Shown: positions 2,312-41,730 of the stretch, piece by piece
Layout: each line of letters starts with the position of its first letter
How positions within the stretch are numbered: the stretch's first letter is position 1
From: Aphanomyces cochlioides
Lineage: Eukaryota > Oomycota > Saprolegniomycetes > Saprolegniales > Verrucalvaceae
Direction: 5' to 3'
Assembly: GCA_019828595.1 (NCBI GenBank)
Contig: JAHQRK010000022.1
Coordinates: 1,116,001 to 1,180,000 of the forward strand
DNA: 64,000 nucleotides
Translations under genes and position numbers: made by a program
The notes under the pieces: model-generated
What the model was told of the DNA's origin: nothing
What the model saw: the letters and a program-made list of their open reading frames with translations, nothing else
Database searches by the model: none

Positions 2312-2314
2312 GGT

Positions 2315-7877: not shown

Positions 7878-8001
7878 GGTCTTATAGTGTAGCGGTTATC
7901 ACGTCTCCTTGACGTGGAGAAGATACTCAGTTAACCGCTTAAAATATACTCAGTTAACCTTGACGTGGAGAAGGTCCCCGGTTCAAGTCCGGGTAAGACC
8001 A
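7878..8001 (+). pseudogene. tRNA-Val(GAC) with 36-bp LINE-tail insertion
   Basis: The tRNA is lengthened by 51 bp: 36 bp of insert (7922-7957) plus the 15-bp target duplication (7907-7921 and 7958-7972). A and B boxes are both present but further apart, so pol III could still transcribe it. A working tRNA would need removal of the extra 51 nt, as for an intron. The T5 run follows at 8005-8009. Confidence 0.9.
7922..7957 (+). mobile_element. LINE-A tail mini-insertion
   Basis: Two copies of ATACTCAGTTAA, the last 12 nt of LINE-A, separated by CCGCTTAAAAT, and inserted at the LINE-A target with target duplication. Most likely an extremely 5'-truncated LINE-A product with the tail copied twice. 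Confidence 0.85.
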
Positions 8002-11613: not shown

Positions 11614-11974
11614 GGGGGGGGGGGGAAATTGGCTCAGTGGTAGAGCACACGCTTCGTAAGCGAGAGGTCACCGGTTCGATCCCGGGCTAGGACGAGGGAT
11701 TTGCAACCCCTCCACCCCCCCTGTCCGAAAGCACGGTATTTAATGGGATGTATGTGATCGGGAAACTTAAGTGCGCCTCGAACTTACAAGAGAAGGATTG
11801 TCCGGAAGCGGTTACCGGAATGAAAGTGTCAGTTTAATGTGGCCGTTCTGTAAAAACGTGTCGAATCGCTGTACTACCGAAAAGGTAGAACTATCAAGAC
11901 AAAGCCGTTAGACCTGGTCCAGCTGAGTTAAAGTAGTTCATATCCACTATAACCTAGGTAATATACTCAATAAA
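11614..11974 (+). mobile_element. SINE with tRNA-Thr(CGT)-like head and LINE-A-like tail
   Basis: A 361-bp non-coding element. It begins with 12 G, then a tRNA-like head with A box TGGCTCAGTGG (11630-11640), D-stem GCTC/GAGC, an anticodon loop TTCGTAA (CGT, Thr-like), and B box GGTTCGATCC (11673-11682). The acceptor stem no longer pairs. The body holds the hairpins CCGG..CCGG and CTACC-GAAAA-GGTAG. The last 16 nt, TAATATACTCAATAAA, differ from the LINE-A end at two sites. There is no TTTT run inside; the first pol III stop is the T5 of the split tRNA at 12022-12026. It probably moves with LINE-A enzymes. Confidence 0.92.
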
Positions 11975-15901: not shown

Positions 15902-16259
15902 GAAGGGGGGAAATTGGCTCAGTGGTAGAGCACACGCTTCGTAAGCGAGAGGTCACCGGTTCGATCCCGGGCTAGGACGAGGGATTTGCAACCCCTCCAC
16001 CCCCCCTGTCCGAAAGCACGGTATTTAATGGGATGTATGTGATCGGGAAACTTAAGTGCGCCTCGAACTTACAAGAGAAGGATTGTCCGGAAGCGGTTAC
16101 CGGAATGAAAGTGTCAGTTTAATGTGGCCGTTCTGTAAAAACGTGTCGAATCGCTGTACTACCGAAAAGGTAGAACTATCAAGACAAAGCCGTTAGACCT
16201 GGTCCAGCTGAGTTAAAGTAGTTCATATCCACTATAACCTAGGTAATATACTCAATAAA
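15902..16259 (+). mobile_element. SINE, third copy
   Basis: About 358 bp. The 5' junction is GAA plus six G before AAATTGG. The body follows the first copy, without the AG insertion of the second, and the tail is the same. Confidence 0.91.
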
Positions 16260-18590: not shown

Positions 18591-18634
18591 GGTCTTATAG
18601 TGTAGCGGTTATCACGTCTCCTTGACGTGGAGAA
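18591..18634 (+). pseudogene. tRNA-Val(GAC) 5' half, upstream of LINE-A copy 1
   Basis: Left half ending in the target copy 18620-18634. A pol III A box remains about 125 nt upstream of LINE-A ORF1 without its B box. Confidence 0.93.
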
Positions 18635-18714
18635 CTTTCGTTTTTGCTTTGTAGGTTAAACTACCACAGCCCCCCAACGGAAAATCTTGCTTTTTAGGTG
18701 CTTTCGACAACGTC

Positions 18715-21240
18715 ATGGCCTCTAGCGCGGAAAAAACCATCCTTTCGACGGTGTCTCGATTCGCTCAACGTGAATCGACGCCTGACCCTAGCCAAGCGAC
18801 GCCCGGTCCGAGCCGAGAAGCCGCTGAAAAACCTCCTTCCTCTAGGAACAGCGCCGCTGCGTCCGACTCTCTTCGTAGGGAAAATGTTTCCAACCAAGAT
18901 GGTGTTGACTTAGGTGGTGACACTGGTCCAAATATGGACAAAAAAAATGGACCCGATGATGCAGGAATGGGTATGGATATTAATGGTTCCAACGAAAAAC
19001 CTGCCTCTGACGCCAATGGTGGCAAATTACTCAAGGATTCTGACAAGCCTGGGGAGAATATTACCCATCCTGACGGCACCCCTCATGGACGAGTTTTACC
19101 TAATTCGAAAAATCCCTCCAAAGATGGGACAAACTCTCCTGCCAAACCCTCCAACCCCAAAAAACAAGCTTCGTCCAACAACGAAGGCAAAAAAACCAAC
19201 TCGAAGAAAAATAATGTATGGGAAGGAGCCCGCCATGTGAAAACCCAATTGGTTCGCAACACTGGTGGGCATCCCATTGACGACTCTGAATTGGAAGAAT
19301 TAATTCGACAAGCTCGAGAATTCCGCCAAAACCCTACTGCTATGGATGAATTCATTGAAGACATCTTGAAAACTCCATCCTCGAAGGCTTGCACTGTGGA
19401 CATTCCTCTGGGAGAAGCTTTCCGTCAAGTCAAGGACTACCAAATCCGAGCGAATTTAATTACCCAAAACCCGGGTACGCTTTGGGAATCGAAATTCAAG
19501 GAAATTCTGTTCCACAAGAAAAACCCGACTACTCTCTCTTTGACGTTTTATGACGATGATCTATTGCGCAAAACTTGTGGAACCTCCCTTCGTCTGGGAA
19601 AACAAGAATTTACTGTGCCTGAATATTCTCCCCACTCGAAACTTTATTTTATTACTTTCAACAACCTGGTGGATCACGATATTCAAAAAGCGATTTTGAA
19701 AAAGTTGGAAGAGCTCACTCACTGCGTCATTGTTGGTTTTAACCCCAGTACTGACAATTTATTACGCTCGACCCAATTTCGAGTCCTTTTTGACTCCGAA
19801 ACTCCTCCTTTGGCATTGGTACCAGATGATGGAGGCGAGCCTCTGAGAGAAATCGAGATCCAAAACCAAGTTTATGTTTTTCAACATAAAATTCGGTCCC
19901 TCAATCAAACGGTCCCTCCCAGCGTTCAAGCTAGACTGGAAAAAGCCAAACAAAAAGACGACGCTAAAAAGAATACAGACCATGTCGAGGAAAACGCTAC
20001 AGAGGAAAAAACTGATGCTCCCGAAAATCCATCGACAGAAAACCAACCACCCAACACCCCGAAGGAAAATACTGGCACAACTGGAAACTCCGAATCCCCT
20101 AATGCCGATCCCAAGGAAAATCAAAATGGCAAGGAAAACTTTGTCGACCTGTCAAGCGATGTGGACATGGAACAAGAGGAGAAATCAAATATCGAAGAGG
20201 AAGAAATGGTAGCTCAACCCAAGAAGATATTAAATCCTCCACAATCACCCAAGGGCTCGAGCGAGAATAATATTATTCTCACAGACAAACCCAATTTATC
20301 CCAGGACGAATTTAAACCAACTCGAGCCGGTTTTATTCAAGGTCCCCAATACAAAATATCAGCTACCTCGATTCCAACACAAAATCGATTCGCTATCCTC
20401 AGCTCAGACGACTCTGACGTGACAACATCAGGCACAACGGTTCCTCGATTCCATCTTGATATCGTTCCTACCGACACGCCCAAAAAACGTCCTGCTTCGT
20501 CCCCAAAATCAACGATACCCAAAAAAATTCCAGCCTCTACGAAACCAGCAGGAGCCAAAGTGAAGGCTCAAATCACAGAGCTGAAGAAAAAACTGAATGA
20601 ATCCACCAACCCATTGGTATTTCATGATGAAACCCTCAACCAACCTGGCTTTATTGGAAATATCTATATGGACCCAAAATCTCGCAAAATCGCATCCAAT
20701 TTAATTGCCTCGAGAGGAATTATACGTTTAATGGCTGGAGAAAATCCCATGCAAGCTATTGATGAAGAACGATTTACCTCGTACTACCAAAAACAGCATG
20801 GCCATCCTCCTCCTGAAAATTACAGCCCCACAAATCTATTCCAAAGTTTGTGTCCAAATGACGAAGACTACCACATGAGAAGATCTCTAGCAGCAATCGA
20901 TCTATTTCTGTCCAACAGAGCACCTGAAGCTTATACGAACGATGAGTATATTAATCTGTGCCTGAAAGACAAAGTCCACCGTTGGCCCAATTGCAATTTA
21001 ATCACGGACGCCTCCTTGATTAAATTAATTTCCAGTCCTGCTGCTGGAAACCTGGTGCAACATCATAAAATTGAAGAAGAGTTGAGCCATATTGTGAAAG
21101 ATCTGGCACTCCAAACAATTGACCCTACGAAGTGTTTTGACTCGGATACTGATGCCTTGTTAACTTTACTTCCGGACGAAAAGGCTCCTGAACTCGACTA
21201 CAAAGAACTTGGCGATGATGACAATGCAGACTCCAATTGA
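18715..21240 (+). CDS. LINE-A ORF1 protein (841 aa)
   Basis: First ORF of LINE-A. The start is the first ATG, 80 nt into the element. By position it should be the RNA-binding protein of the retrotransposon particle; no CCHC knuckle or known domain is recognised. Three parts are visible: a Ser/Pro/Gly/Asn-rich N-terminus (1-180); a folded-looking block (~241-400) with motifs KQEFTVPEY, KLYFITFNN and VYVFQHKI; then an acidic, Lys/Glu/Pro-rich linker (~400-640) and a second block (~644-805) with SLAAIDLFLSNRAPE and KLISSPAAGN. Both blocks have counterparts in LINE-B ORF1. This copy has Leu106 where copies 2-4 have Pro, and Asp835 where copies 2-3 have Gly. Confidence 0.93.
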   Translation: MASSAEKTILSTVSRFAQRESTPDPSQATPGPSREAAEKPPSSRNSAAASDSLRRENVSNQDGVDLGGDTGPNMDKKNGPDDAGMGMDINGSNEKPASDANGGKLLKDSDKPGENITHPDGTPHGRVLPNSKNPSKDGTNSPAKPSNPKKQASSNNEGKKTNSKKNNVWEGARHVKTQLVRNTGGHPIDDSELEELIRQAREFRQNPTAMDEFIEDILKTPSSKACTVDIPLGEAFRQVKDYQIRANLITQNPGTLWESKFKEILFHKKNPTTLSLTFYDDDLLRKTCGTSLRLGKQEFTVPEYSPHSKLYFITFNNLVDHDIQKAILKKLEELTHCVIVGFNPSTDNLLRSTQFRVLFDSETPPLALVPDDGGEPLREIEIQNQVYVFQHKIRSLNQTVPPSVQARLEKAKQKDDAKKNTDHVEENATEEKTDAPENPSTENQPPNTPKENTGTTGNSESPNADPKENQNGKENFVDLSSDVDMEQEEKSNIEEEEMVAQPKKILNPPQSPKGSSENNIILTDKPNLSQDEFKPTRAGFIQGPQYKISATSIPTQNRFAILSSDDSDVTTSGTTVPRFHLDIVPTDTPKKRPASSPKSTIPKKIPASTKPAGAKVKAQITELKKKLNESTNPLVFHDETLNQPGFIGNIYMDPKSRKIASNLIASRGIIRLMAGENPMQAIDEERFTSYYQKQHGHPPPENYSPTNLFQSLCPNDEDYHMRRSLAAIDLFLSNRAPEAYTNDEYINLCLKDKVHRWPNCNLITDASLIKLISSPAAGNLVQHHKIEEELSHIVKDLALQTIDPTKCFDSDTDALLTLLPDEKAPELDYKELGDDDNADSN

Positions 21241-21340
21241 CTCGCCAACACACAAAATCAATTAAAACCACAATCACCACACCCCGACCCAAACCAACAC
21301 AACGACTTGAAGTCAAAAAATCAAAACCCAAATATTAATC

Positions 21341-24300
21341 ATGACCGTGACCACAATTAACGCGCTACCACAAGCCATTATCGACTGGGATATTAGCTTG
21401 TTTTCTCTCAACACAAATGGTCTCTCCAACTCTTTCCACCACCTTCTCAAGAACTTTCTCCTCAAAAACTCTATCTCACTTATCCAAGAAACTCGACTGC
21501 CTTACCCCAGCGACCATGGCAAAATCAATTTCTACTGGAAAAAACATACCAACCAACAAGGCACTTTCTTCTACGAGGAGCCAATTTATTCCATCAGCCA
21601 TACCTCTCATCCTACTGGAGGCCTTGCTACATTTATTCATCCTGACTGCCCTCTGGACAATTGCACCAATTTAAACCACTCTTGGGACAAACCTCTCCTC
21701 CGTGGTCGTTATTTACTTATATCGGCCACTCTGGACAATATCCCGGTTTTTATTCACAACATCTATGCTCCGTACGACTATCACGACCGTGTGGATTTTT
21801 TTAATGATCTGCCTCGCGATTTTCCACTCGAAGCTTTTCATATTGTTGGTGGCGACTTTAACGTTATTTTCTCCCCAACATTAGATTCATGCCGTCCTTC
21901 GACTCATGCGACCCATGGCTCATATGAACTCAACCTATGGCTACAAGATTTACACCTCGTTGACATTTTCCGTCAACAAAATCCACTGAAACGTGCTTTC
22001 ACAAGTCCAAAATTTGTCAATCGGCTTGACTATATTTTCATCTCGTCTGCTATGGCATCCCTACGTCATCTGAAATTTCGTCACCTGGAACTAATTCCTC
22101 ATGCTGACCACACTCCCTGCAAATTATTGACCAAACGTCCAGCAGTATCAATGGGACCTGGTCCATGGAAAACACCACAATGGGTTCTCAACAATGACAA
22201 GGCCAAATTAATTATCTCTCGTCAACTTGAAACCTTCCTTACCAAGACCCAATTAAACTCAAATGTTGGTCTACATTTCGACACCATGATCACCAACATG
22301 CGAAATCAATTAAAATACCTACACGACGAGTTGGTCGAAAATCAACAAAGGCCTCTCAAGAAATTATCTATGGATTTGGCTTTATTGATTCGGGATTACC
22401 AAAACGCCCCATGTGCGTCCTTGATGGCACGTATCAAAACAATTCAAGCTGCCATACATGAATATCATGACAGGAAAAAAGTCCTACGGGAAGATACTGC
22501 TATGCAAACTCATCTCGAGAAAGCGGAAAGGTGTACCAAATTTCACCTGAAGCCACCTCGCACAATCCCTTTACAAAAATCTCCCTTCAAGGCACTCAAA
22601 ATGTCCAATGGAAATATTGCTTCTGATCAACAATCAATTTCCTCGACACTCCACGAGTTTTATTCTGACCTGTATGGCGACCATGAGGCAGTTGACAAGG
22701 AAAGAATGGCCAAGTATTTAAAAACTCTGATATCTCGCCGACTCAATATCGACGACAAGAGATTTATTGGGGCTCCTCTCACGGCAAACGAATTTTATTT
22801 TGCCATTAAACACTCCAAACGGAATTCAACTCCTGGGCCAAATTCACTGCCCTACGAAATTTTGAAAATGTTTCCCCATGAATGGTCCCTGGCTTTGGAA
22901 ATGCTATACTATTACCAAATCAACTCTCACTCCAACTTGGCACCCTCCCAATTGACAAGTTTAATTGTACTGCTGTACAAAAAGGACGACAAACTACTCC
23001 CAAAAAATTACCGTCCCATCAGCTTGGTCAATATCGACGTGAAAATCCTCACAATGGTCCTTGCAGAACGAATGCAGAGAATCATTCAGTCGATAGTCCA
23101 CCCGGATCAAACAGGTTTTATTCGTGGTCGATCAATCCAAACCAATTTACTGCGCTTGGAAGACCTGAATCACTTTATGAAGTTTTATTCCTCCGAGTCT
23201 ATTGTGGCCCTCTTGGACTTTGAAAAAGCCTTTGATAGGGTCAACCATTCCTATTTATTGGCAACCCTGAAGGAATTTAATTTTCCACCGTCCTTTCTCA
23301 ACATGGTCAAAGTGCTTTATTCAAATCGTCGTGGACGAATTATTGTCAATGGACATTTATCCAACCCATTTAAGATCCAACGTGGTGTTTTACAAGGCGA
23401 CCCATTATCACCTCTTTTATTTGTCTTGGCGCTAGAACCTATGTGTTTAGCCATACGCAAGAGAAAAGATTTGGGCATACGAATTGGTCATCACACTCAC
23501 ACCGGGAGCTATTATGCAGACGACTCCCAATTGTACTCCAAAAATACATCGACGTTGCAACTCCAACTCGACATCGTCAAAAAATTCTGTGATATCTCTG
23601 GTTTCAAGTTAAATCTCTCCAAGACAGAATTATTAACCCATGCCAATTTACCTCCAGACCTGGCACCTTTGGCTATTACTGATGACAAACCTGCTAAATC
23701 GTTGGGCCTTTTAATTTCTCCCAACATCACAGCCACAACACGTTTAAATTCGCTATTGGAGAAATTGGTCTCAAGAACACAATTATGGTCTTATCGAGCA
23801 CGAACCCTACCCGGAAAAGTGACAATCCTAAGGTCAATTTGTTTTCCTGTGCTCTGGTATCAACTCCAATTTATTCCGATCGACAAAGAATATGCCAAAC
23901 TATTCGACAAGGTCGCCAAGCAATTTATTCACGGCGATACAATTGATCCATATTCGACTCAACGTTATTTGCATCAATTCAACTCGGACATTATTTTCCT
24001 TCCAAAAGCACAAGGTGGTCTCGGATTTAAATCGTCTACCCACTGGTGGTCAAAACTACACCGGGTCATGACCTTTAAATGCTTCAAGCTACTCCTAGCA
24101 CCACCTCACAACTCGTATGGTCAAACGAAATTGCCAGCATGGCTATCCATTGGAGAATATTTACTCTCCAGAGCCTTCAGTCCATGGGGAAATTTTTATG
24201 ATCTCCTTTTCATGAGTCCACACTCTAGTATGTACAAAGCCATATCACACCAAGATAAGGTTCCACCTCTCTGGTCAGCATTTACTCGACTATGGTTATC

Positions 24301-25426
24301 CTTATCTCCAACCCCACTTAAATTTCCCACAGTACAAGTCGATGGAAATTTTCCACTTTGGCACAATCAATTCTTACCCTTGGAGAAAACTGTCTTTGAA
24401 CACTGCTATCCAAAGACTTATGATTATGCTGTATCACTGGCAAAATTAAATTTTACCCATGTTCGCCACCTACTCGATGAAAATGGCAATCTTATGGATC
24501 GGAAAATCCTGTTAGATTGGATTAAATCTCAATGCTCAAGACGCCATTTAGCCACTCCCGATCATAAATGGTGGTATGCTCTACACGGGAGACTTAAAGC
24601 TATTCTACCATCTCCACCCGAGGACACAGAAATAAATTTTCGTCAGCCTACACCTTATCGGCAAACGGCTACCAAAATTACTTGGGCTGGAAATTTTAAA
24701 GATGGCTTTTTACCCTTTATTGATGCCACCTTGGATGATTTAACTCATGAATTTAAATCCAAATCAGCTCAGGAGGTTTTACCCACAGCGCATTTATTGG
24801 TACCCTCGGATTTTTATGCCCACAAGGAAAATATTAAAGTGGTCGCATTCTACAGGCAGCCCAAATTTATTCTGCCAACGTATAGTGCTTTCATATATCG
24901 ACTGCTTATACGAGCCTTACCTCTCCGATACAAATTCAAGTACTCGGACGATATCCCGAACACTTGTATTTTTTGTCATGAAGTGGAGACGTATAAACAT
25001 TTCACCTTGGACTGTCCATATACTCGAGCATGTTGGAGTCCATTTAAATCCATGGCCAGATCCCTTAACTTTACTTGGCCAACTACCATGGAAAAAATAT
25101 TCTTCTCTCCTATAGCACTCCAAGACAAAGACCTCCAAGCTGGATTTAATTTGCTGTGGCCAATTTTTTTATCTTGTATTTGGTATACAATTTGGAAAAC
25201 TCGGTGCGACAGGATTTACCGTCCAGATTTACCTAACAAAACACCTATGACGATATCCAGCTTAGCAGGACACATTATAAAGCGGCATCTGTACCAAGTC
25301 AATCGAGCCTCCTTGGACGACTCCACGAAGGCTTCCTTGACATCGGTGCTTCATAGTTTGCACCAGAATGAGTGGTTCTCTGCCCAAATCTTACCACAAT
25401 CTCAAAACGAGACCTTGGAACCTTAA
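21341..25426 (+). CDS. LINE-A ORF2: APE endonuclease and reverse transcriptase (1361 aa)
   Basis: Nicks target DNA and copies the element RNA from the nick. The endonuclease (~18-260) shows N24-T-N-G, QETR 49-52 (Glu50), GDFN 171-174, RLDY 228-231 and HADH 254-257, the expected catalytic set. The reverse transcriptase (~540-800) shows NYRPISL from 556, LDFEKAFD (Asp626), GVLQGDP 682-688 and YADD 725-728. A C-terminal zinc motif C1209-x2-C1212-x7-H1220-x4-C1225 is typical of LINE ORF2. The ATG is 100 nt after the ORF1 stop and in another frame, so reinitiation or internal entry is needed. Target choice in the tRNA anticodon arm is inferred from insertion sites. Leu163, Ala1087 and Lys1112 are Pro, Ser and Glu in copies 2 and 3. 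Confidence 0.97.
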   Translation: MTVTTINALPQAIIDWDISLFSLNTNGLSNSFHHLLKNFLLKNSISLIQETRLPYPSDHGKINFYWKKHTNQQGTFFYEEPIYSISHTSHPTGGLATFIHPDCPLDNCTNLNHSWDKPLLRGRYLLISATLDNIPVFIHNIYAPYDYHDRVDFFNDLPRDFPLEAFHIVGGDFNVIFSPTLDSCRPSTHATHGSYELNLWLQDLHLVDIFRQQNPLKRAFTSPKFVNRLDYIFISSAMASLRHLKFRHLELIPHADHTPCKLLTKRPAVSMGPGPWKTPQWVLNNDKAKLIISRQLETFLTKTQLNSNVGLHFDTMITNMRNQLKYLHDELVENQQRPLKKLSMDLALLIRDYQNAPCASLMARIKTIQAAIHEYHDRKKVLREDTAMQTHLEKAERCTKFHLKPPRTIPLQKSPFKALKMSNGNIASDQQSISSTLHEFYSDLYGDHEAVDKERMAKYLKTLISRRLNIDDKRFIGAPLTANEFYFAIKHSKRNSTPGPNSLPYEILKMFPHEWSLALEMLYYYQINSHSNLAPSQLTSLIVLLYKKDDKLLPKNYRPISLVNIDVKILTMVLAERMQRIIQSIVHPDQTGFIRGRSIQTNLLRLEDLNHFMKFYSSESIVALLDFEKAFDRVNHSYLLATLKEFNFPPSFLNMVKVLYSNRRGRIIVNGHLSNPFKIQRGVLQGDPLSPLLFVLALEPMCLAIRKRKDLGIRIGHHTHTGSYYADDSQLYSKNTSTLQLQLDIVKKFCDISGFKLNLSKTELLTHANLPPDLAPLAITDDKPAKSLGLLISPNITATTRLNSLLEKLVSRTQLWSYRARTLPGKVTILRSICFPVLWYQLQFIPIDKEYAKLFDKVAKQFIHGDTIDPYSTQRYLHQFNSDIIFLPKAQGGLGFKSSTHWWSKLHRVMTFKCFKLLLAPPHNSYGQTKLPAWLSIGEYLLSRAFSPWGNFYDLLFMSPHSSMYKAISHQDKVPPLWSAFTRLWLSLSPTPLKFPTVQVDGNFPLWHNQFLPLEKTVFEHCYPKTYDYAVSLAKLNFTHVRHLLDENGNLMDRKILLDWIKSQCSRRHLATPDHKWWYALHGRLKAILPSPPEDTEINFRQPTPYRQTATKITWAGNFKDGFLPFIDATLDDLTHEFKSKSAQEVLPTAHLLVPSDFYAHKENIKVVAFYRQPKFILPTYSAFIYRLLIRALPLRYKFKYSDDIPNTCIFCHEVETYKHFTLDCPYTRACWSPFKSMARSLNFTWPTTMEKIFFSPIALQDKDLQAGFNLLWPIFLSCIWYTIWKTRCDRIYRPDLPNKTPMTISSLAGHIIKRHLYQVNRASLDDSTKASLTSVLHSLHQNEWFSAQILPQSQNETLEP

Positions 25427-27863
25427 AAGGCATGTTATATTGCAACCTTTGAAGAAATTCACCTAAGTCACCCAAACCAATGGGAAAACTCAAAGTGGAT
25501 TTTCTCGCGACCCACTTGGCCTTTTCATGCGTTTGATGGCTCGTTAGCCCCAGCTAACAGAGCTCTATGAACACACCAAGTAACTTTATCTCATGCCGAG
25601 TCGTTCACAAAATCGACTTGACTTTATCCGTTCACCCAAAATGGCAAAACTATCGACAACCCTGGCATTGCCCTGACGATCATTTCAGACATTCTAATGG
25701 TCTTCAGGGTTGCTAGACATCCCAAGCAGACAAACGCAAGCGTTAGATTGCAAAAAAGTGCAGTGGTTCTCTCACAACAACACTTTGAAAATTGTTACGA
25801 CGTCTCCCCCTGGGGGCGAAATCTCAAAATCGAGTGCACACTTTTTGTTCGGGAAAATTGCGCCACGGTGCCTAAAAGATTCTCCCATGTCTCCTCCTCA
25901 AGATGTGCCAGTTTGCGAGTGCTCAAACCTCGCCAAACTCGCGAAACAAAATTCGAAAGGAAATTCGACCCGGTGACACCCATTTTGAACCGGTTTCAAC
26001 CCGTCACCAAAAGTGAAATTTCTCTCGACCTACTGCGTGGATTTCTACGTTTAGTGGCTTGTTATCTCAGTTGAATCGAGCTCTATGCCGACACCAACTA
26101 GCACATATTGCAGATCTATGGTTCAAAACCACGAACCCATTTTGGACTGTCACCCAAACCGGTGAAACACCAGGACAACTCGAACGCTTTCCCTACGGTC
26201 ACCGAGTGACATCTAGGGGTCTAGTGGGTGGCTCCACCACTTATTACGACTAGCCAAAGCGTTAGAACGCCCTGAAACATCCTGGTTTGCTCGCAATCCT
26301 CAATCCAAAATGTCAACCGCCCCTATCCACCGGCTACAAAACCTTAAGTCGGCTACAGGTCGCAAATCATTTCCTATCGACCGGCTATGACTCTTTTCCA
26401 TCCTATCATGGCTAGACGAGTGTTTTAAGCCATCAAGAGCGATGATTGAAGCCCTGGAACCTACTTGCCGTCGCCCCGACAACTTTTGGTGAAATGGCTA
26501 AAACTCATCGAAATGGCTCCTGAACGCAAATCAACTCCGATCGCCCAACTTAGAGTTGGAGAGGCTCGAGAATGTCCTCGCGATGGATTTGAGCTATCAA
26601 GCACCATGATAGCAGCACAGGAACCCAACTTCCGATTCCAAACCATTTTGAGCCGATAAGGCTCCAAAACGACCATCGTAGCTCATTTCAGCTACACGAC
26701 TCTATATGCACCGATTAATATGGTGCATCCACCGCTAGCCTCCATTGATGGAGGACACCAAGTATGGCTATCTATCTCATAGCCGTTCGGAAGTTATGAC
26801 TCCTTCAAATTTGGCCGCCGAGACGCCCGATTGGAAAAAACACTGGTTTTGGCTAGCGCTCTCCCGCTACACACTACCTATGGCGATTCTAATGGTGCGC
26901 TATCCTTCGTACGTATCGTCGCTACGATTCTGCCAAGTGGCTCCATGCACCGCGGCGCCGTTCGAAATCCAGCTCCGACGATGCTCGCGCTCGAGACCTA
27001 TCCGCGCATGGCGCATGTCAAAATGGCTCCTCCCAAATATTTTACCCTTTTTTATTATTTTTGGGAGGTTTACCCCAAAAGCCCAACCCACAAGGGATTT
27101 TCCCTCTATCTCGCCACCATCAACTCCGATGAAGACGCTCCTGAAATCAACTTTGCTTGTCATGGAACGACCGACCTCGTTGATTTTTTTGGCTGGTCAA
27201 ATCGTCCAAGAACATTTTATTTTGGATGGTCTTTTCTCTCAAACCCAGCTTTTCCCATGGATCCAGCGATTTAATTCGGCCTCCTGAGGTCGAATTAAAT
27301 TGGCCACGACCTTTTTGGATTTTTTGGGCTCCTACCTCTTGCCAATTTATTTTCCTTGGGCCTGATTTTACTCTGTTTCGACCCTTTTGTCAATTTTTGG
27401 CCTTCCTCTCCTGTCGATTTATTTATTCATGGATCGACCCCAACTCAAGCTTTTATTTACTTGGCCTTTTTCACTGTGTACCTCCACTTGGAACTTTTAT
27501 CAAGACTTTTGTATACAAATTTTCAAGTCCTCCACAGTCAACCCGAAATTGCCTCGTATCTCGCCACCACCAACTCGGATCAAGATGGTCATGAAAAGAA
27601 AGTTGCTTGTATGGCTCTTCTCTATACTGTTGAATTTTTTCACAGCCTGAATCGCCATGCAACATTTTCTTTCTGCCATGGTTCCTCCAAATTACCCCAC
27701 ACCCAAGTCTATTTCGGTTAAGCAACACTGGACGATTTTCCACAAGAACCTTCCAAGGTCACATTTCGCAACACATATTTATTATGCGACCTATGAAGCC
27801 AAAATCGAAAGTCTAGTTTGCGGCCCTTTTGGGCCATATTAATTCTTTAATATACTCAGTTAA
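25427..27863 (+). other. LINE-A 3' UTR, 2.44 kb, hairpin-rich
   Basis: No convincing coding sequence; frames of 120-180 aa overlap each other and are broken differently among copies. It holds many perfect short hairpins, such as 25543-25558 (GTTAGC/GCTAAC), 25806-25816 (CCCCC/GGGGG), 25972-26008 (GGTGAC/GTCACC around TTGAA/TTCAA) and a dense run at 26119-26784. A diverged direct repeat lies at 27105-27230 and 27555-27682. The end has GGCCC-TTTT-GGGCC (27822-27835) and the tail shared with the SINE. Probably an RNA domain read by the reverse transcriptase. Confidence 0.8.
27822..27863 (+). promoter_or_regulatory. LINE-A 3'-terminal hairpin and SINE-shared tail
   Basis: A 5-bp perfect stem with TTTT loop (27822-27835) is followed by 28 nt ending TAATATACTCAGTTAA, matched 14/16 by the SINE end. 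In stringent LINE/SINE pairs such a 3' segment is what the reverse transcriptase recognises; that role is inferred here. Confidence 0.7.
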
Positions 27864-27907
27864 CCTTGACGTGGAGAAGGTCCCCGGTTCAAGTCCGGGT
27901 AAGACCA
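27864..27907 (+). pseudogene. tRNA-Val(GAC) 3' half, downstream of LINE-A copy 1
   Basis: Right target copy 27864-27878, B box, acceptor strand and discriminator A. Confidence 0.93.
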
Positions 27908-29014: not shown

Positions 29015-29087
29015 GGTCTTATAGTGTAGCGGTTATCACGTCTCCTTGACGTGGAGAAGGTCCCCGGTTCAAGTCCGGGTAAGACCA
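29015..29087 (+). tRNA. tRNA-Val: tRNA-Val(GAC), intact
   Basis: Full gene, same sequence as at 5518; the only uninterrupted locus between LINE-A copy 1 and the nested SINE/LINE-B locus. Confidence 0.95.
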
Positions 29088-30238: not shown

Positions 30239-30260
30239 GGGGGGGGAAATTGGCTCAGTG
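30239..30260 (+). mobile_element. SINE, fourth copy, 5' piece
   Basis: Eight G, then AAATTGGCTCAGTG: the start of the SINE up to the D-loop of its tRNA head, where LINE-B cuts in. The last 19 bp (30242-30260) are repeated at 38920-38938. Confidence 0.93.
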
Positions 30261-32177
30261 TACAATCGCGTATATTGAATTTAATTATACGCTAAATAAT
30301 AATGACCGTCATTAATCACTCTTGAGTGAATAATATTGGTACTTGTGAGATTTGAGCGCATGTAGTTTTACCTCTTGAAACTTGATTTTGTTGTATCAGT
30401 TGATACAGGTAAAAGTTGGCTTCTTGACACGTCGCATGTGCTGTCGATTGTGGTCTTCAAGTCGTGTAACAACATGAATGGTCTTGGGTGATGTGGACAT
30501 GGGACAGACTTGTCTTGTCTTCGACGTCAGATGGGTGTGGAGTAATCTTGGACTGGCTTCAGAACGTCCACATGTTGCTTTGACTAATCTTGGACAGGAC
30601 CATTGGCACCAGATGATGTGTGAACTAATCTTCCACTGGATTTTTTCTTGTCGCAAAGTGCCATCGTCGTTGAACGTTGGTGCGTCACCGTCGATTGTGC
30701 AGTCGTCATGGGTGCCTTGTGGTCGCATGTTCTTGGGTCGTTGATCGTGTCTTGATGTTTGTATGGTCTTGCCTGAGGAAGTTCACTGGATTTTTTTCTT
30801 GCCGGACTTGAAAATTTTGAGTGGCGGAGAACTTCCTTGAGGATGTTTTGAAAAGTTCCTTGGCCATTTTTCAATTTTGCCGCTGCCATGCCGCCGTGAT
30901 ACTGTCGCTCTGCTGCTTCGTTTGGCCGCTGCTGTTGCTGTTCGTGGTCGTGTTGTGCTGTTGTTGCCGCTTGGTGTGCCGTGCTGCTGCTGCTGTGGTC
31001 GCTTGCTGTGCCGTGTCGTTGCCTTGCCTTGGTTTGCTGCTGCTGTGTCCGTGCTGCTGCTGCTGTGGTCGCTTGCTGTGCCGTGTCGTTGTTGCCGCTA
31101 CCGTGTCCGTGCTGCCGTGTTTTTGCCGCTTGCTATGCCGACGCTCGTGTGACTTGCCGTGGGTGCGACTTGCCGTGGGTGCGATCTGCCATGGGTGCGA
31201 TGGGTGCGACCGCGATACACGATGGCTGAAGAAGGCGATGGGCTTCAAGGAAGACAAGATTCAAGGCGTTCAAGAACAAGAGCCAGCTGGAGCGAATAGC
31301 GAGCGGTCAAATCTCCGTCCCTTCGTGAGTGTCGGGACGCAGGGCCTCACCCGTCTTTCTGCTCGTGGTTTGATTCGGCTGGCTTTTGAGAAGAAGGCGT
31401 CCAAGGCGTTCAAGGAAGAAAAGCGCGAAGACTTTTTTCCAAGTCGGCTCTGCTTTTGTGGAGTCGCCAGCGTGTCGCTTGGAGTGCCGAAAAAAGCTGG
31501 CTGTGGGGTGTGACGAGGGGGGGATACCTCCGATCGCTCCTAGGCCAGTTGGTAGTCCCCCTACCCGGATACTTCTTGAGGGCGCGTTGCCTTTTTACTT
31601 TGCCGCCGTCGAGTCGTGGCTTCGGCCGCGACTTTCAACCCTTGGGACTTTGTCTCAAGGGGACGCCCCGGGGCTTCAAGGAAGACTTCAGCGATTTGGC
31701 TTGGTTTGTATCTCGTGCTTGTTGGTATGACTTGTTTAGGAAAGCGAGCGATTTTTGCGACCGGTCGCCCATTTTGGCGCCGATGATTCGTCGTCGGCGC
31801 GTCCAAGAAGGTGGGAATTGGCTACGCCGGGCCAGCCATCCGAGGTCCATTCGACCAACTTCGTAAGTTGTTTCCTTTGTTTTTGCTTGACTTTTGTGCT
31901 TAGCTTGTTTTTTTCTTGCTTTTTCAAGCGAAGTTGGCGAAAACCACCAAGTCTTTCCGAAAGACCTCGCCGATTTTGTGCGAAGCGCTGCCCAATTTTT
32001 TAATTTCGTAATTCACCCTTGAATTGTCGATTTTTCTGGATTTTTGTAGTTGAATTTCAACTTGGTTGGACTTGCCTTCAAAACTTTGGCACGCTTGCGG
32101 GTAAGTTTGCTTCAATTCAAACAAAGATCTCACTTCAACTTGTAGATCCATCATGTTGACTAATCGAGCCGGAGTAA
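30261..32177 (-). other. LINE-B 3' UTR with CAG-rich tract
   Basis: Non-coding end of LINE-B. The terminal part folds into GCGTATA/TATACGC (30268-30274 with 30286-30292), with a second inverted repeat, TAATGAC/GTCATTA, just inside. A tract near 30890-31140 is rich in CTG/GCC (CAG on the element strand). Open frames of 100-230 aa on both strands here are low in complexity (Cys/Leu or Gln/His runs) and are not called. Confidence 0.75.
30981..31091. repeat. 41-bp direct repeat, period 70, in LINE-B 3' UTR
   Basis: 30981-31021 is repeated exactly at 31051-31091. Both contain GTGCTGCTGCTGCTGTGG and GCTGTGCCGTGTCGTTG. Likely slippage growth of a CTG-rich tract. Confidence 0.85.
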
Positions 32178-35100
32178 TCAAGCCAACTTGAACTTGAAGA
32201 TTGCGGGATGTTTACTCAAAAATCGGCGGTACGAACCACGGTGTCTTAACAATCCAAGGATAATCATTGCCTGTTGATAGGTGTCTTGATCGTGAATGTG
32301 GCGAAGCCATCGGCGGACATTAGACGCCCAAAAAGTCAACGCAACATCGTTCAACGCTGGTAAGTGTGGTGTCTTGGCTCCGTCAAACTTGACTTTGTTT
32401 CGGTGTGTCCATAGGAGGTGAAGAATGCCGCAAGCAAGCATAAACCAGAGCCGATGGAGAACGTCTCGATATCGAGCCCATCGCTGCGCGACTTGAAAAG
32501 CATCGATGTTTTCGACCCACTCCCAGGTAAAGCGAACCCCAAACAAACTCCATGCCTCACGATGTTGTAGCCAAAGATCTCGTGTGATTGTGCATTCCAT
32601 GAACAAGTGCCGCAATGTTTCTCGCGCATAACAATTCGGGTAGCAGCATCGAAGTGCTCTTGGGACAGTGGCCTCCTTGTACTTGAATTTATTGCCCACT
32701 GGGATGATGTCGTAGAGAATTCGCGTCCAAAGATCTGCTTGAACTGGCGTCACAAGACTGGCAAAAGGCTTGACAAAATGTGAAAGGTATTTGGCGATTT
32801 TCGCTCGAGTCTCACGTGTGCTAGAGTGGAAGGGATGCGGCCGCGTTAACAAAGGAGCATGGAAGCTCACTCGCTTGATGATTTTCGTTGTCCACGACTT
32901 GAACGGTACGTCGACATCTCCTTGTCGATATGAAATCACCGTTTGCGGACTAGGATCGTTTTCAACCGGGGCGTCTAGCCGCTTGTTGGCTTGAGTCCAA
33001 ACATTCGTTGCAATCAGCGTCACCAGCTTGTAAAAGTGCTTGAAGGATGTCGGGACAGGTAATTCTTCGACGAAGTGATCTAGGTGGTCTTCCATCGACT
33101 CACGAAACTCATCGTAGGTTGGCCACGTTCGACCTGGAGTCAACAAGTCTTCAAGGCAGTGTATGCTTCTTCGAGCAAGGTGTCTGTACCAGTCGCGATG
33201 GTTTTGAAGCGTGATTGCAAGCGACGATATCCCGTCTCGACCCGGGACTTGAAAGAGAGGGTGCGACGACATCCACAATGGCATTTGTGTCATCTGACTC
33301 AGCGTAGGCTCGTGTGGTGTCTTCATTGTCATTGGAATTTGAGCCCATTGCTTCCAGACATTGCGCCAAAACGGTGAGAGCAACTTGAACTGGACGAGCT
33401 TATTGTTTGGGCTAGGATGATACATCATGAAGTCCCAATTTGTCACTCGAGAGTATGGATACATGCAACGACTCAAGCGATCTGTCGGTAAGATTGCCCA
33501 TTGTGGAGGCTCTTCTTGATCAGCTTGGACTAGGAGTTGAAGACGAGTGACTCTTTGTTTTCGAATCACTGAAGCAATATGCGGCACTTTGAAGCCCGTC
33601 TTCGAGTCATGGATCAAGCCACTTGGAGCAAGGGCCAAATACTTGTCTTCGGCTTGCGTGCGTCGACTCATGACAAACTTGTTGACCATAGACTGCCATT
33701 TTCGCACGGTATTGTCTGGTATCGGTAGCACCATCGTGTAATGCCAAAGCTGTGATAGGATCATCGTTTTCACAAGCAACCGCCTGCCTTTGAGGGTTCT
33801 TGCTCGACACGCCCACGTGGTAAACGACTTGTAAAACTTATCGCTGATTGCATTGATTTGAAGCATAGGATCCAATTGGTGTCCCAGTTCAATCCCAAGA
33901 TATTTCACTGGCGTTCCACTTGGTACCATGTTCAATCTTGGATGTTGGAATACTGATTGATTGTTGTCTAGCGTCAAGACTTTGCTCTTACTGCGATTGA
34001 GTTTTGCTCCAGAGTGACGGCAAAACTCGTCGACGAGCTTAAGCTGTTCTTCCAAGTCGCCCACGGAGCTGGAGATGAGCGATGTGTCGTCGGCGAAGAG
34101 AAGAACGGAAGCGATCCCAGAGTCCGAGAAAGCGTAACCATACTCGGGATGATTGCGAAGCATTTGAGCGAGCGGTTCTATCGTCAAGACGAAAAGCATC
34201 GAAGACAACGGATCGCCTTGCTTGACTCCTCGCGATGGATAGTATGGATCGGTAAGTCTGCCATTGATGTTCAAACTGACTTGAGTTTGGTTGTAAAGTA
34301 ACTTAACCCAGTCAATGAAGTGATCTCCAACATTGAATTTCTTCAAAACGGCGAACATGAACTCATGATTCACACGATCATAGGCCTTTTCAAAGTCCAG
34401 GAACATCGCGTAGGCTTCTTGATTGAAGGTGGTGCAATGATGTTGAAGGTCTTGCAGAAAGATGACATGATCATGGATCCGCCTGCCTTTGACGAAGCCA
34501 TTTTGTTCGGGTTGGACGATCAACGGTAAGACTTGTGACATTCGATACGCTAACGCGCGCGATAGGACTTTGACTTCAACTGGAATCAAGGCAATGGGTC
34601 GATAGTTCGCTGGGTTGCGTCGATCGCCGCCTTTGAAGAGCAACGATATGGCGGACCAGCGTTGCGAGGCCAACATGATGCCTTCCTGAAGTTGGTGGTT
34701 GAAGACTACCGACAAGATTTCGCCAAACAAGGCTGGATGTAGCTGGTAAAAGCCAGCCGAGAACCCATCTATTCCAGGTGACTTGTGAGGATTCATCGTC
34801 TTGATGGATTGCGCTAGCTCTTCGATCGTCAACGGCGCATCCAAAGCCTCTGAATCGTCTTGGGGTAAGTTTCTCTCAAGTACATTCAAGAACTGTGACT
34901 TCTCTTGTGGACTTGTAGGTTGAAAGTCGCCTTCACTCATCACCGCCGACCAATGACGATTGAATGCTGCATGAATTTCCTCTGGTATGGCAGTGACGTT
35001 TCCTTGTTCGTCGTAACATTCGACGATAGGTATGGAAAACTGCCGAGCGCGTGGTTTGCGAAAGAAATGACTTGTCGGTGCCTCGTTTTGGGTGGCGTGG

Positions 35101-36350
35101 AAGTCAAAACTCAAGTCCGCGTGGTGCTGTTTCAAGTCTTGCTTCTTGGTCTCATACTGTGTCCTTGCAGTATTGAGAGCTGCTTCGGTGAGGCGTCCGT
35201 GATGATGTCGTAACTGAGCTTGTAGCCATTGGATCTTGGCCTCTTGAAGTGCGTTCTTTTGGTTCGTTACCATTCGAGCGTGATATTTCTGAAGAAAGCG
35301 TTTGGTGCGGCGTTGCCATTGAGTCCACAAGACCCCTGGCTGGTTCGATGTCCGCAGTCGCTCGAGCAGTTCGCTGGCTTCGGACACAATCGCCTCTCGA
35401 ACTTCTCGGATCGCCAAAAGTTCTTTTGGCAGCTTCCAGTAGCTCTTGACGCGTGTTGTTTTTACTGGTTGGAGCTCCACTTTGTGCCATAAGTGATCTG
35501 TGTTTGCTGTAGGCTCGAAGTACTCGCCAGCAGAATACATTCGACACAAGGCAGGCTGAAGGAAGATGTAATCAAGCCGATTGAGTCCCTTCGGCGAAGA
35601 GTAAACCTTCTTCGTGGGGTTGAAAGATCTCCAGGCGTCGACGACCTCAAGTTCTTGTAGCCACGCGAAACAAGACTGCCTGTTGACTTGGTGGTTTGAG
35701 GTGGTGGAGCCTCTTGAGTCCAATGCTCGATCCATCGGGAGATTGAAGTCTCCCATGACGACATGTTTGGACGCGATTGGGAAGTTTCGTGGCAAGGCAT
35801 CAAAGAAGGCGTCTCGCTCGCTGTCTTCAACAGGTGCGTAGACATTGTGGTAGTAGATGGGGTCGTCTCCCCACATTGAACTGACCACCATGTAGCGATC
35901 TTCGATGTCGTATTGGCGTTCATGGTGAAGTGTGTTGAAGCCAGGGATGGTGTGTTGGAAGATCATGGCGACGCCACCAGATCGGTATTGTTCAAGTTCG
36001 CCTCCCAGAAGCCGATGGTCATTGGCAGCAATGAAGTACTTGTCATGACCAAGAGCGTGAGCAAGGTGAAACATGAACGTGGAGAATTTCTTCTCACTGG
36101 CAAATTTGGTTTCTTGTAGGGCAACGATCTCGTTCCGTGAGATCATGGTGTTGACAAGTTGGTTTCCATTGTCTCTCGAAAGGCCATTTATATTGGCCGT
36201 GACAATGGACAAGTTGACAAGTGAAGAGTTGGGGAACGTTGGCTGTGGTGGTTGTTGGTTTGGATGCGATGAAGTTGGCTGCACTGAAGCCGCGAGGACC
36301 TTAGTACAACAAGTTGTTCCTGCGTTGCAGGCGGGTATTGTCGTTGCCAA
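32178..36350 (-). CDS. LINE-B ORF2: APE endonuclease and reverse transcriptase (~1390 aa)
   Basis: Endonuclease motifs: NINGL near the N-terminus, QETK 79-82, GDFN 200-203, RLDY 258-261 and TDH 284-286. Reverse transcriptase: NYRPIAL, LDFEKAYD (Asp652), GVKQGDPLS and FADD 752-755. C-terminal zinc motif C1236-x3-C1240-x7-H1248-x4-C1253. The frame opens after a stop at 36360-36362 and has no ATG before the endonuclease; 36350 is a TTG. It overlaps the ORF1 end by about 60 nt in the +1 frame, so translation probably needs a +1 frameshift, a non-AUG start or termination-reinitiation. The insertion site suggests it nicks the D-loop/A-box of tRNA-like DNA (inference from one insertion). Confidence 0.95.
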   Translation of the reverse strand: MATTIPACNAGTTCCTKVLAASVQPTSSHPNQQPPQPTFPNSSLVNLSIVTANINGLSRDNGNQLVNTMISRNEIVALQETKFASEKKFSTFMFHLAHALGHDKYFIAANDHRLLGGELEQYRSGGVAMIFQHTIPGFNTLHHERQYDIEDRYMVVSSMWGDDPIYYHNVYAPVEDSERDAFFDALPRNFPIASKHVVMGDFNLPMDRALDSRGSTTSNHQVNRQSCFAWLQELEVVDAWRSFNPTKKVYSSPKGLNRLDYIFLQPALCRMYSAGEYFEPTANTDHLWHKVELQPVKTTRVKSYWKLPKELLAIREVREAIVSEASELLERLRTSNQPGVLWTQWQRRTKRFLQKYHARMVTNQKNALQEAKIQWLQAQLRHHHGRLTEAALNTARTQYETKKQDLKQHHADLSFDFHATQNEAPTSHFFRKPRARQFSIPIVECYDEQGNVTAIPEEIHAAFNRHWSAVMSEGDFQPTSPQEKSQFLNVLERNLPQDDSEALDAPLTIEELAQSIKTMNPHKSPGIDGFSAGFYQLHPALFGEILSVVFNHQLQEGIMLASQRWSAISLLFKGGDRRNPANYRPIALIPVEVKVLSRALAYRMSQVLPLIVQPEQNGFVKGRRIHDHVIFLQDLQHHCTTFNQEAYAMFLDFEKAYDRVNHEFMFAVLKKFNVGDHFIDWVKLLYNQTQVSLNINGRLTDPYYPSRGVKQGDPLSSMLFVLTIEPLAQMLRNHPEYGYAFSDSGIASVLLFADDTSLISSSVGDLEEQLKLVDEFCRHSGAKLNRSKSKVLTLDNNQSVFQHPRLNMVPSGTPVKYLGIELGHQLDPMLQINAISDKFYKSFTTWACRARTLKGRRLLVKTMILSQLWHYTMVLPIPDNTVRKWQSMVNKFVMSRRTQAEDKYLALAPSGLIHDSKTGFKVPHIASVIRKQRVTRLQLLVQADQEEPPQWAILPTDRLSRCMYPYSRVTNWDFMMYHPSPNNKLVQFKLLSPFWRNVWKQWAQIPMTMKTPHEPTLSQMTQMPLWMSSHPLFQVPGRDGISSLAITLQNHRDWYRHLARRSIHCLEDLLTPGRTWPTYDEFRESMEDHLDHFVEELPVPTSFKHFYKLVTLIATNVWTQANKRLDAPVENDPSPQTVISYRQGDVDVPFKSWTTKIIKRVSFHAPLLTRPHPFHSSTRETRAKIAKYLSHFVKPFASLVTPVQADLWTRILYDIIPVGNKFKYKEATVPRALRCCYPNCYARETLRHLFMECTITRDLWLQHREAWSLFGVRFTWEWVENIDAFQVAQRWARYRDVLHRLWFMLACGILHLLWTHRNKVKFDGAKTPHLPALNDVALTFWASNVRRWLRHIHDQDTYQQAMIILGLLRHRGSYRRFLSKHPAIFKFKLA

Positions 36351-38859: not shown

Positions 38860-38919
38860 TGGTCGAGGGGTACCTTACTTTGGCTGTTGACTTGAGTGGT
38901 TGACGGCAAAAGTAAAAGT

Positions 38920-39273
38920 GGGGGAAATTGGCTCAGTGGTAGAGCACACGCTTCGTAAGCGAGAGGTCACCGGTTCGATCCCGGGCTAGGACGAGGGATT
39001 TGCAACCCCTCCACCCCCCCTGTCCGAAAGCACGGTATTTAATGGGATGTATGTGATCGGGAAACTTAAGTGCGCCTCGAACTTACAAGAGAAGGATTGT
39101 CCGGAAGCGGTTACCGGAATGAAAGTGTCAGTTTAATGTGGCCGTTCTGTAAAAACGTGTCGAATCGCTGTACTACCGAAAAGGTAGAACTATCAAGACA
39201 AAGCCGTTAGACCTGGTCCAGCTGAGTTAAAGTAGTTCATATCCACTATAACCTAGGTAATATACTCAATAAA
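38920..39273 (+). mobile_element. SINE, fourth copy, 3' piece
   Basis: Begins with the 19-bp duplicated part of the tRNA head (38920-38938) and continues through B box, body and tail to 39273. Apart from the LINE-B insertion it follows the first SINE copy closely. Confidence 0.93.
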
Positions 39274-41647: not shown

Positions 41648-41730
41648 CGACTTTCGTTTTTGCTTTGTAGGTTAAACTACCACAGCCCCCCAACGGAAAA
41701 TCTTGCTTTTTAGGTGCTTTCGACAACGTC

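What the first reader, a model, noticed from the sequence alone, without database searches (positions are those of the whole stretch)
18591..27907. LINE-A inserts into one exact site in the anticodon arm of a tRNA-Val gene
All thirteen interrupted loci break the tRNA at the same place, in tRNA-sense orientation. Twelve show the CCTTGACGTGGAGAA duplication where both sides are visible or implied; one left copy (15889) has an extra G. The right junction shows where the primer strand was cut: on the bottom strand, just 3' of the complement of CCTTGACG, with the second cut 15 bp away. Known tRNA-associated LINEs of Dictyostelium insert beside tRNA genes, whereas this element splits the gene. A sequence-specific APE-type LINE using the anticodon loop as its target would be a distinct specificity.
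Basis: partly seen in the sequence, partly recalled or inferred. Interest (0 to 1): 0.9.

Follow-up and report, generated by a model that had tools for sequence, protein, structure and literature searches.

The report
LINE that splits tRNA genes
In a water mould, a young family of jumping elements copies itself into the anticodon arm of many different tRNA genes, a short companion element sits in the same place, and related elements use a second spot in tRNA genes, so the inside of tRNA genes serves as a shared landing place.

Summary
All 13 interrupted tRNA-Val genes in the window break at one site with a 15-bp duplication. They are not all LINE-A: six are LINE-A, three are 36-bp tail dimers, and four are a tRNA-headed SINE, one carrying another LINE (LINE-B). 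In a 264-kb piece of the contig, 40 of 93 tRNA-Val units are interrupted, 40 of 40 at this site, with many 5' ends. Genome-wide, the tail also lies in the anticodon arm of Ala, Arg, Gly and other tRNAs; rejoining flanks restored a tRNA at 9 of 19 loci tested. So the target is wider than one tRNA-Val site, and leaky: 12 of 28 distinct sampled targets outside the Val array are not tRNA-like, and one further copy splits a 5S rRNA gene. LINE-A is an APE-type, L1-group LINE. The sister lineage (LINE-B, LINE-C) inserts antisense at the A box of tRNA-type sequences, 40 of 40 sampled 3' junctions. One host gene points to Aphanomyces, an oomycete. tRNA-specific LINEs with another endonuclease type were known; I file this as a new variant.

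The parts
18591..18634 (+). 5' part of a split tRNA-Val gene (nt 1-44, including the left 15-bp duplication 18620-18634)
   Evidence: the intact neighbour 17411-17483 was called tRNA-Val (gac) by ARAGORN
18635..27863 (+). full-length LINE-A, 9229 bp, 3' end AATATACTCAGTTAA, no poly(A)
18715..21240 (+). LINE-A ORF1, 841 aa, no Pfam family above its cut-off
21341..25426 (+). LINE-A ORF2, 1361 aa: APE-type endonuclease (N-terminal), reverse transcriptase, zf-RVT-like stretch just under its cut-off
27864..27907 (+). right 15-bp duplication (27864-27878) and 3' part of the split tRNA-Val gene (nt 30 on)
1..1110 (+). right part of a 5'-truncated LINE-A copy (2056 bp; begins outside the window)
2312..4367 (+). 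5'-truncated LINE-A copy, 2056 bp, in tRNA-Val
7922..7957 (+). 36-bp insert of two LINE-A tail pieces (also 9153-9188 and 10383-10418)
11614..11974 (+). SINE in tRNA-Val, tRNA-like head (RF00005), tail AATATACTCAATAAA
13170..13528 (+). SINE in tRNA-Val
15904..16259 (+). SINE in tRNA-Val (variant left junction)
30239..39273 (+). SINE in tRNA-Val, itself interrupted by LINE-B
30261..38919 (-). LINE-B, 8659 bp, antisense, in the tRNA-like head of the SINE (duplication GGGGGAAATTGGCTCAGTG); ORF1 36301-38859, ORF2 32178-36350
41648..50880 (+). full-length LINE-A, 9233 bp, in tRNA-Val
52076..61304 (+). full-length LINE-A, 9229 bp, in tRNA-Val
62497..64000 (+). full-length LINE-A, 9231 bp, cut by the window end
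29015..29087 (+). intact tRNA-Val (gac), an unused target; also 5518-5590, 6698-6770, 14680-14752, 17411-17483 and 40424-40496

Best explanation
LINE-A is a young two-ORF LINE of the L1 group. Inferred mechanism: target-primed reverse transcription inside tRNA genes. Its APE-type endonuclease nicks the bottom strand in the 5' side of the anticodon stem (junction after gene nt 26-29 in nine rejoined tRNAs). The freed 3' end, which nearly always ends in GG, pairs with CC at or next to the element RNA's 3' end and primes cDNA synthesis. The top strand is cut about 15-19 bp further on, giving the duplication. The element lands in tRNA sense orientation and splits the gene. A SINE with a tRNA-like head and nearly the same 15-nt tail is copied by the same machinery into the same place. 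The target is recognised mainly through anticodon-arm DNA sequence, which would also explain leakage to non-tRNA sites and a 5S rRNA gene. Multicopy tRNA arrays make the damage tolerable, and unequal exchange then copies interrupted units. Shown: junctions, duplications, orientation, tail sharing, protein domains, near-identity of ten copies. Inferred: enzyme steps, RNA-primer pairing, SINE dependence on LINE-A, mode of recognition, tolerance.
For: 40 of 40 interrupted units in the 264-kb piece use one site, with several unrelated 5' ends (full length; truncations leaving 8601, 6163, 5913, 3379 and 2056 bp; tail dimers; full and truncated SINE). Exact tail matches genome-wide: 270 followed by C, 3 not; 100 continue as the Val target, 108 as the Ala target. 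Rejoined flanks gave a tRNA at 9 of 19 loci tested: Arg(acg), Ala(cgc) twice, Ala(agc) twice, Ala(tgc) twice, Gly(tcc), Val(gac) on C14; neither flank alone gave that tRNA. 16 of 28 distinct sampled targets outside the Val array have a B box 20-25 nt after the junction; about 0.0023 per site is expected from 19 kb of host DNA, and a rough binomial P is 8e-30 if the 5429 first-look tRNA candidates are taken as the genome's tRNA number (distinct targets are not fully independent). The N-terminal 267 aa match L1 endonuclease structures, E 2.5e-9; the stretch with NIYAP, GDFN, the Asp of LDY and the last DH carries the score, NxNG and QET align in a weak separate stretch. Best whole-protein PDB match: LINE-1 ORF2 protein, E 2.9e-66. 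Ten full-length array copies are 99.6-100% identical, ORF2 open in 10 of 10, ORF1 full in 8 of 10.
Against: 12 of 28 distinct sampled targets are not tRNA-like. Of 20 sampled full-length 5' junctions (none from the C15 Val array, of 64 genome-wide) 10 show a tRNA 5' half, 1 a 5S gene, 1 another LINE-A, 8 other DNA (by eye): a strong preference, not an absolute one. 10 of 19 rejoined loci gave no tRNA. Genome-wide counts rest on exact end patterns, so older, changed copies were not seen; the protein search that would show them failed twice. 3 of 44 sampled junctions lack the CC. The steady distance to the B box would also fit guidance by the Pol III machinery. Pfam did not report the endonuclease of LINE-A itself at E 0.1. 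No enzyme, RNA or read data.
Confidence: 0.82

Rival explanations
1. Targeting is done chiefly by the Pol III machinery: TFIIIC or TFIIIB bound at the A and B boxes recruits the element, and the endonuclease only picks a nearby CC (GG on the nicked strand).
For: B box lies 20-25 nt from the junction in all 16 tRNA-like targets although the target letters differ; one further non-tRNA target is a 5S rRNA gene, also a Pol III gene; Dictyostelium TRE5-A ORF1 protein interacts with TFIIIB (PMC5911963, passages).
Against: One exact bond within the Val array; 12 distinct targets have no B box, yet begin with CC, and 2 of the 12 begin with CCGCTTCG, the letters of the tRNA-Ala(cgc) target (noticed after the fact).
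Confidence: 0.3
2. The interrupted array units descend from one or few founder insertions amplified with the array.
For: Some classes are clearly copied: 36-bp insert three times in a row, 2056-bp copy twice, 6163-bp copy twice, the SINE junction TGAGGGGGG nine times; 91 spacers are 99.2-100% identical.
Against: Many unrelated 5' ends and two tail types in the array, and insertions at separate tRNA loci on other contigs.
Confidence: 0.04
3. The element recognises a hairpin or cruciform extruded by the anticodon-stem inverted repeat, not a sequence.
For: tRNA targets are inverted repeats and the two cuts lie on either side of the loop.
Against: Eight rejoined targets that gave no tRNA have fold z-scores of -0.8 to 0.9 against shuffles. 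The test is weak: the four tRNA targets in it reach only -0.7 to -1.0, and one non-tRNA target (L095/L035) does fold into a stem.
Confidence: 0.1
4. Collapsed or mis-joined assembly created the split genes.
For: Long near-identical arrays are hard to assemble; reads were not available.
Against: Junctions with duplications also occur at tRNA and non-tRNA loci on many other contigs.
Confidence: 0.02

Closest known systems
tRNA-specific NeSL/LIN elements (NeSL-1_TV in tRNA-Pro; LIN15_SM in tRNA-Arg; LIN25_SM in tRNA-Glu; PMC4640811, passages)
   Same: Non-LTR retrotransposons specific for tRNA genes.
   Different: They belong with NeSL, a group with a restriction-like endonuclease (by recall and the paper's context); LINE-A has an APE-type one and groups with L1. 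Each is given for one tRNA; LINE-A uses several. Where inside the tRNA they insert was not in the passages seen.
Dewa of zebrafish (PMC3706591, passages; APE type and Tx1 clade by recall)
   Same: Site-specific element tied to tRNA genes.
   Different: [quoted passage not shown] not compared by sequence here.
TRE5/TRE3 and NLTR-A/B of dictyostelids (PMC5911963, passages)
   Same: L1-type LINEs that seek tRNA genes.
   Different: They insert outside the gene (2-6 bp upstream for NLTR-A, 40-54 bp upstream for TRE5, 40-150 bp downstream for TRE3).
Dada DNA transposons (PMC3706591 and PMC8869645, passages)
   Same: Insert inside many tRNA genes at two hot spots, around the anticodon and at nt 8-13 (A box side); some also in 5S rRNA genes.
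   Different: DDE transposase, 6-7 bp duplications, opposite orientation at the anticodon; LINE-A has RT and APE, duplications of about 15-19 bp, and is in sense.
R1, TRAS/SART, Keno, Mutsu and similar APE-type site-specific LINEs (recalled; partly PMC4640811)
   Same: APE endonuclease, exact target in multicopy sequence, fixed 3' end.
   Different: Targets are rRNA, telomere or snRNA; here the inside of tRNA genes, across isoacceptors.
Oomycete tRNA arrays of Phytophthora infestans (PMC9584435, passages)
   Same: Large tandem arrays of tRNA genes in an oomycete.
   Different: No inserted LINEs are described in the 12 of 29 places shown to me.

Membership tests
L1-group APE-type LINE | RT that groups with L1 | tested here: met
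   Best PDB match LINE-1 ORF2 protein E 2.9e-66, R2 E 1.7e-26; RT tree of 56 rows (midpoint root) puts LINE-A on one side of a 99/95 branch with the LINE-1 row and plant rows
L1-group APE-type LINE | N-terminal APE-type endonuclease | tested here: met
   Match to L1 endonuclease structures E 2.5e-9; relative P0005 carries PF03372; Pfam itself missed LINE-A
L1-group APE-type LINE | two ORFs, target duplications, variable 5' truncation, fixed 3' end | tested here: met
Tx1 clade of site-specific LINEs | RT inside the Tx1 clade | not testable with these tools
   No named Tx1 reference sequence was at hand
NeSL/R2-type LINEs with restriction-like endonuclease | restriction-like endonuclease | tested here: not met
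   APE found instead; R2 proteins match only in the RT part; a restriction-like domain was not searched for by itself
Dictyostelid TRE elements | insertion at a distance outside the tRNA gene | tested here: not met
   40 of 40 array inserts lie inside the gene
Dada transposons | DDE transposase and 6-7 bp duplications | tested here: not met
   RT and APE in ORF2, no transposase among Pfam matches; duplications of 15-19 bp in the nine tRNA-restoring loci
Strictly site-specific LINE | nearly all copies in one target | tested here: inconclusive
   All 40 array inserts conform, 12 of 28 distinct targets outside the Val array are not tRNA-like

The most novel reading that the evidence does not exclude
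A whole clade of APE-type, L1-group LINEs in an Aphanomyces-like oomycete lives in tRNA genes and has divided them up: the LINE-A lineage with its SINE takes the anticodon arm in sense orientation and splits the gene, and the sister lineage of LINE-B and LINE-C takes the D-arm/A box in antisense orientation, where the long duplication seems to leave a complete tRNA copy behind. Both act across several isoacceptors. This would be the tRNA counterpart of R1 and R2 sharing the 28S rRNA gene, at much the same two spots that Dada DNA transposons use in fish.
Probability: 0.75. Interest if true: 0.8.

Novelty: new variant of a known kind. Interest (0 to 1): 0.74.

Why it matters
Site-specific LINEs show how a non-LTR element finds its target and tolerates its host. 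Here one genome holds two sister lineages with two exact sites in tRNA genes, a SINE that shares one of them, 64 exact full-length 5' ends of LINE-A, ten near-identical copies with open frames measured, and a set of leaked sites. That is a natural experiment on what an APE endonuclease reads, how the RNA end meets the primer strand, and how host tRNA arrays pay the cost. It also shows DNA transposons (Dada) and LINEs converging on much the same two spots of tRNA genes.

Tried and rejected
Single founder spread by array exchange: rejected as sole cause. Hairpin recognition: a weak test did not support it. Rfam at E 0.1 on 20 loci around junctions judged non-tRNA: one hit, 5S rRNA in L117. Pfam on ORF1: nothing above cut-off. 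First LINE-C test, a 736-bp nested copy against 64 ORF2 proteins, gave no match; a longer copy settled it. A pattern for tRNA-Val(aac) with 2 mismatches returned only GAC copies in the 100 of 219 rows shown and does not answer whether Val(aac) exists. ARAGORN on one SINE found no complete tRNA; Rfam found a tRNA-like head. Eight windows at predicted 3' ends of full-length copies: 5 held the tail (one Ala, one degenerate tRNA-like, one 5S, two other DNA), 3 did not (L114, L116, L121); these five are not in the count of 28. Papers: nine searches, lists capped; none of the listed titles and abstract starts named an APE-type LINE inside tRNA genes. The library holds open-licence papers only; Kojima and Fujiwara 2004 was not seen. 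The introductions of PMC4640811 and PMC8869645 do list tRNA genes among targets of non-LTR elements in general terms.

Rows dropped: 9 of 64 ORF2 candidates were left out of the tree (fragments or split matches). In the target count, two internal tail copies inside L066 were dropped, leaving 28 of 30 distinct flanks; L031 was excluded as a chance tail match. The array count uses 93 units with an exact left half; one further unit had an exact right half only.

Full report
What was checked. The 64-kb window lies in G000:C15:1116001-1180000 of a 76.2-Mb genome in 94 contigs. An intronless NADP-isocitrate dehydrogenase frame to the left of the array is 97% identical over 98% of its length to Aphanomyces astaci, against 82-85% for the named Phytophthora and Peronospora proteins in the upper part of the list. 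On this one gene the host is an oomycete of or near the genus Aphanomyces; the species is not known. Large tRNA tandem arrays are known from the oomycete Phytophthora infestans (PMC9584435, passages read).

The site. In the window 13 tRNA-Val(gac) genes are interrupted and 6 are intact. In the stitched 264-kb piece of C15, 93 units could be read: 53 intact, 40 interrupted, 40 of 40 at the same bond, after nt 29 of the gene, with the 15-bp CCTTGACGTGGAGAA on both sides (two have GGAGGA at the end of the left one). 20 inserts end in the LINE-A tail, 20 in the SINE tail. The 5' ends differ: full length beginning CTTTCG, CGACTTTCG, TGACTTTCG or GGACTTTCG; truncations leaving 8601, 6163, 5913, 3379 and 2056 bp; 36-bp double tails; SINE heads with varied G runs; and a 288-bp truncated SINE. 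Some classes recur in neighbouring units and are array copies, but the set cannot come from one founder.

Beyond the Val array. The exact tail AATATACTCARTWAA occurs 273 times in the genome; 270 are followed by C and 3 are not, and one of these 3 is a chance match by its flanks. 100 continue as the Val target, 99 of them on C15 and one on C14, and 108 as the tRNA-Ala target CCGCTTNGCATGCGG, on C12, C18, C22, C24 and C27 in the 100 rows shown. I sampled 42 loci outside the Val array (20, 20, 2). They hold 44 junctions, 41 of them starting with CC, and after dropping two internal tails 28 distinct targets: 16 have a B box 20-25 nt downstream, 12 do not. Where both flanks were at hand, I rejoined them at 19 loci; 9 gave an ARAGORN tRNA: Arg(acg), Ala(cgc) twice, Ala(agc) twice, Gly(tcc), Ala(tgc) twice and Val(gac) on C14; 10 gave none, among them the 5S gene and two loci that look tRNA-like by eye (L029, L059). 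In the nine, the junction follows gene nt 26-29 and the duplication is 15-19 bp (one mismatch allowed); elsewhere it ranges from 11 to 21 bp by the same rule, with one poor case of 5 bp (L107/L119). Asp(gtc) is read by eye from right flanks only, Thr(agt) from a left flank only. Of 20 sampled full-length 5' junctions out of 64 genome-wide (none taken from the C15 Val array), 10 show a tRNA 5' half (one degenerate, L107), 1 is a 5S rRNA gene, 1 another LINE-A, and 8 other DNA (by eye). So the preference is strong but not absolute, and copies with changed ends were not surveyed.

The proteins. ORF2 (1361 aa) has a reverse transcriptase (Pfam E 7e-39) and a zf-RVT match just under its cut-off. 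Pfam did not report the endonuclease, but a PDB search with the N-terminal 267 aa matches L1 endonucleases (E 2.5e-9); the first two catalytic stretches align only weakly. The whole protein matches LINE-1 ORF2 protein best (human by recall). In the RT tree LINE-A groups with P0004 (93% identical) and P0005 (43%), both from unnamed ENA contigs, and with P0006; this clade is sister to the LINE-B clade (the two together 100/99), which holds proteins named Aphanomyces astaci (P0167) and A. euteiches (P0172); both lie with the LINE-1 row and plant rows. Ten full-length array copies are 99.6-100% identical; ORF2 is open in 10 and ORF1 full in 8.

A second site in the same kind of gene. LINE-B in the window sits antisense in the SINE's tRNA-like head, in its A-box region. 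Its exact 3' end occurs 38 times in the genome. I sampled 20: all 20 continue as CACTGMGCYA, that is, antisense insertion just after a tRNA-type acceptor stem and A box, in 12 different 17-nt sequences, at least one of them again a SINE head (L080). A third element, LINE-C, was found nested in another SINE of the array. Its exact 3' end occurs 203 times; 20 of 20 sampled lie at the same place, 8 sequences. Some of these are the 5' ends of tRNA-Ala genes seen whole elsewhere (GGGGATGTAGCTCA, GGGGTTGTAGCTCA); for most, only this half was read, and the other flank could not be fetched. Three loci already held (L072, L096, L111) show a LINE-B-type 5' end directly followed by a tRNA-Ala 5' half that runs on to the LINE-A or SINE site (by eye); so LINE-B seems to leave a complete tRNA copy on one side, unlike LINE-A. 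The letters next to the element are partly element-borne: tRNA-Ala(agc) reads GCTCAGATGG, LINE-B copies in it read GCTCAGTG and LINE-C copies GCTCAATG. I read this as pairing of the element RNA's end with the target (inference). A 4.98-kb stretch behind one LINE-C end encodes an ORF2 62% identical to P0165 and 38% to LINE-B.

How it works. Known for APE-type LINEs and taken over here: nick, primer extension on the element RNA, second-strand cut, duplication. Specific to this case: the nick in the 5' strand of the anticodon stem; the near-constant CC at the 3' junction; the two tails in the 36-bp inserts, best read as a template jump between two RNA ends, one of which carried CCGCTT, the start of the Ala target (inference). 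Two ways of finding the target remain: reading the DNA letters, which I favour because some non-tRNA targets share letters with tRNA targets next to the nick, and guidance by the Pol III complex, which the steady B-box distance and the 5S insertion would also fit.

Novelty. Retrotransposons specific for tRNA genes are in print for NeSL-1_TV (tRNA-Pro), LIN15_SM (tRNA-Arg) and LIN25_SM (tRNA-Glu) (PMC4640811, passages), in the group with the restriction-like endonuclease (recall and context). Dewa sits in the spacer of tRNA-Leu (PMC3706591, passages). Dictyostelid elements insert outside the gene (PMC5911963, passages). Dada DNA transposons use the anticodon region and nt 8-13 (PMC8869645, passages). 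A paper on oomycete retrotransposons has no word beginning with tRNA in its main text (PMC5348765, passages). Nine searches of the open-licence library (three with capped lists) listed no APE-type LINE inside tRNA genes by title or abstract start. I file it as a new variant: a known way of life, with a different endonuclease class, several isoacceptors, a SINE at the same site, and a sister lineage at a second exact site.

Noticed in passing
window 30261-38919 (-): LINE-B is a second LINE at tRNA-type A boxes, antisense; 20 of 20 sampled of 38 exact 3' ends agree. At least two (L075, L077) are followed, after the 17-bp target, by what looks like another LINE-B 5' end.
   Followed up: yes
C15:1207789-1208959; L142: LINE-C, 203 exact 3' ends, same A-box place (20 of 20 sampled). 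Behind its ORF2 lies a further 464-aa frame without a Pfam match, with a Cys...His arrangement that by eye recalls a cysteine protease.
   Followed up: partly
window 5518-5590 and the other intact copies: The arrayed tRNA-Val has anticodon GAC; by recall eukaryotes normally read these codons with an AAC anticodon, and P. infestans has Val-AAC genes in an array. Whether this gene is used is open (one search did not settle it).
   Followed up: partly
window 7922-7957, 9153-9188, 10383-10418; L066: Short inserts or stretches made of LINE-A tails with CCGCTT between them, which look like template jumping from an RNA that ran on into a tRNA-Ala target.
   Followed up: partly
L110 and L117 (C33): A full-length LINE-A splits a 5S rRNA gene (Rfam 5S on L117, E 4e-6; left part by eye).
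   Followed up: yes
C24, loci L071 and L072: The split tRNA-Ala(agc) is directly followed by a whole tRNA-His(gtg).
   Followed up: no
window 26745-27287 and 3248-3790, 49762-50304, 60185-60727: A 180-aa frame with TTG start in the long LINE-A 3' region, in 4 copies in the window; no Pfam match for the one scanned, 3248-3790.
   Followed up: no
C15 array, 264-kb piece: Two main spacer lengths, 1108 bp (43) and 1114 bp (33), which could order the history of the array.
   Followed up: no
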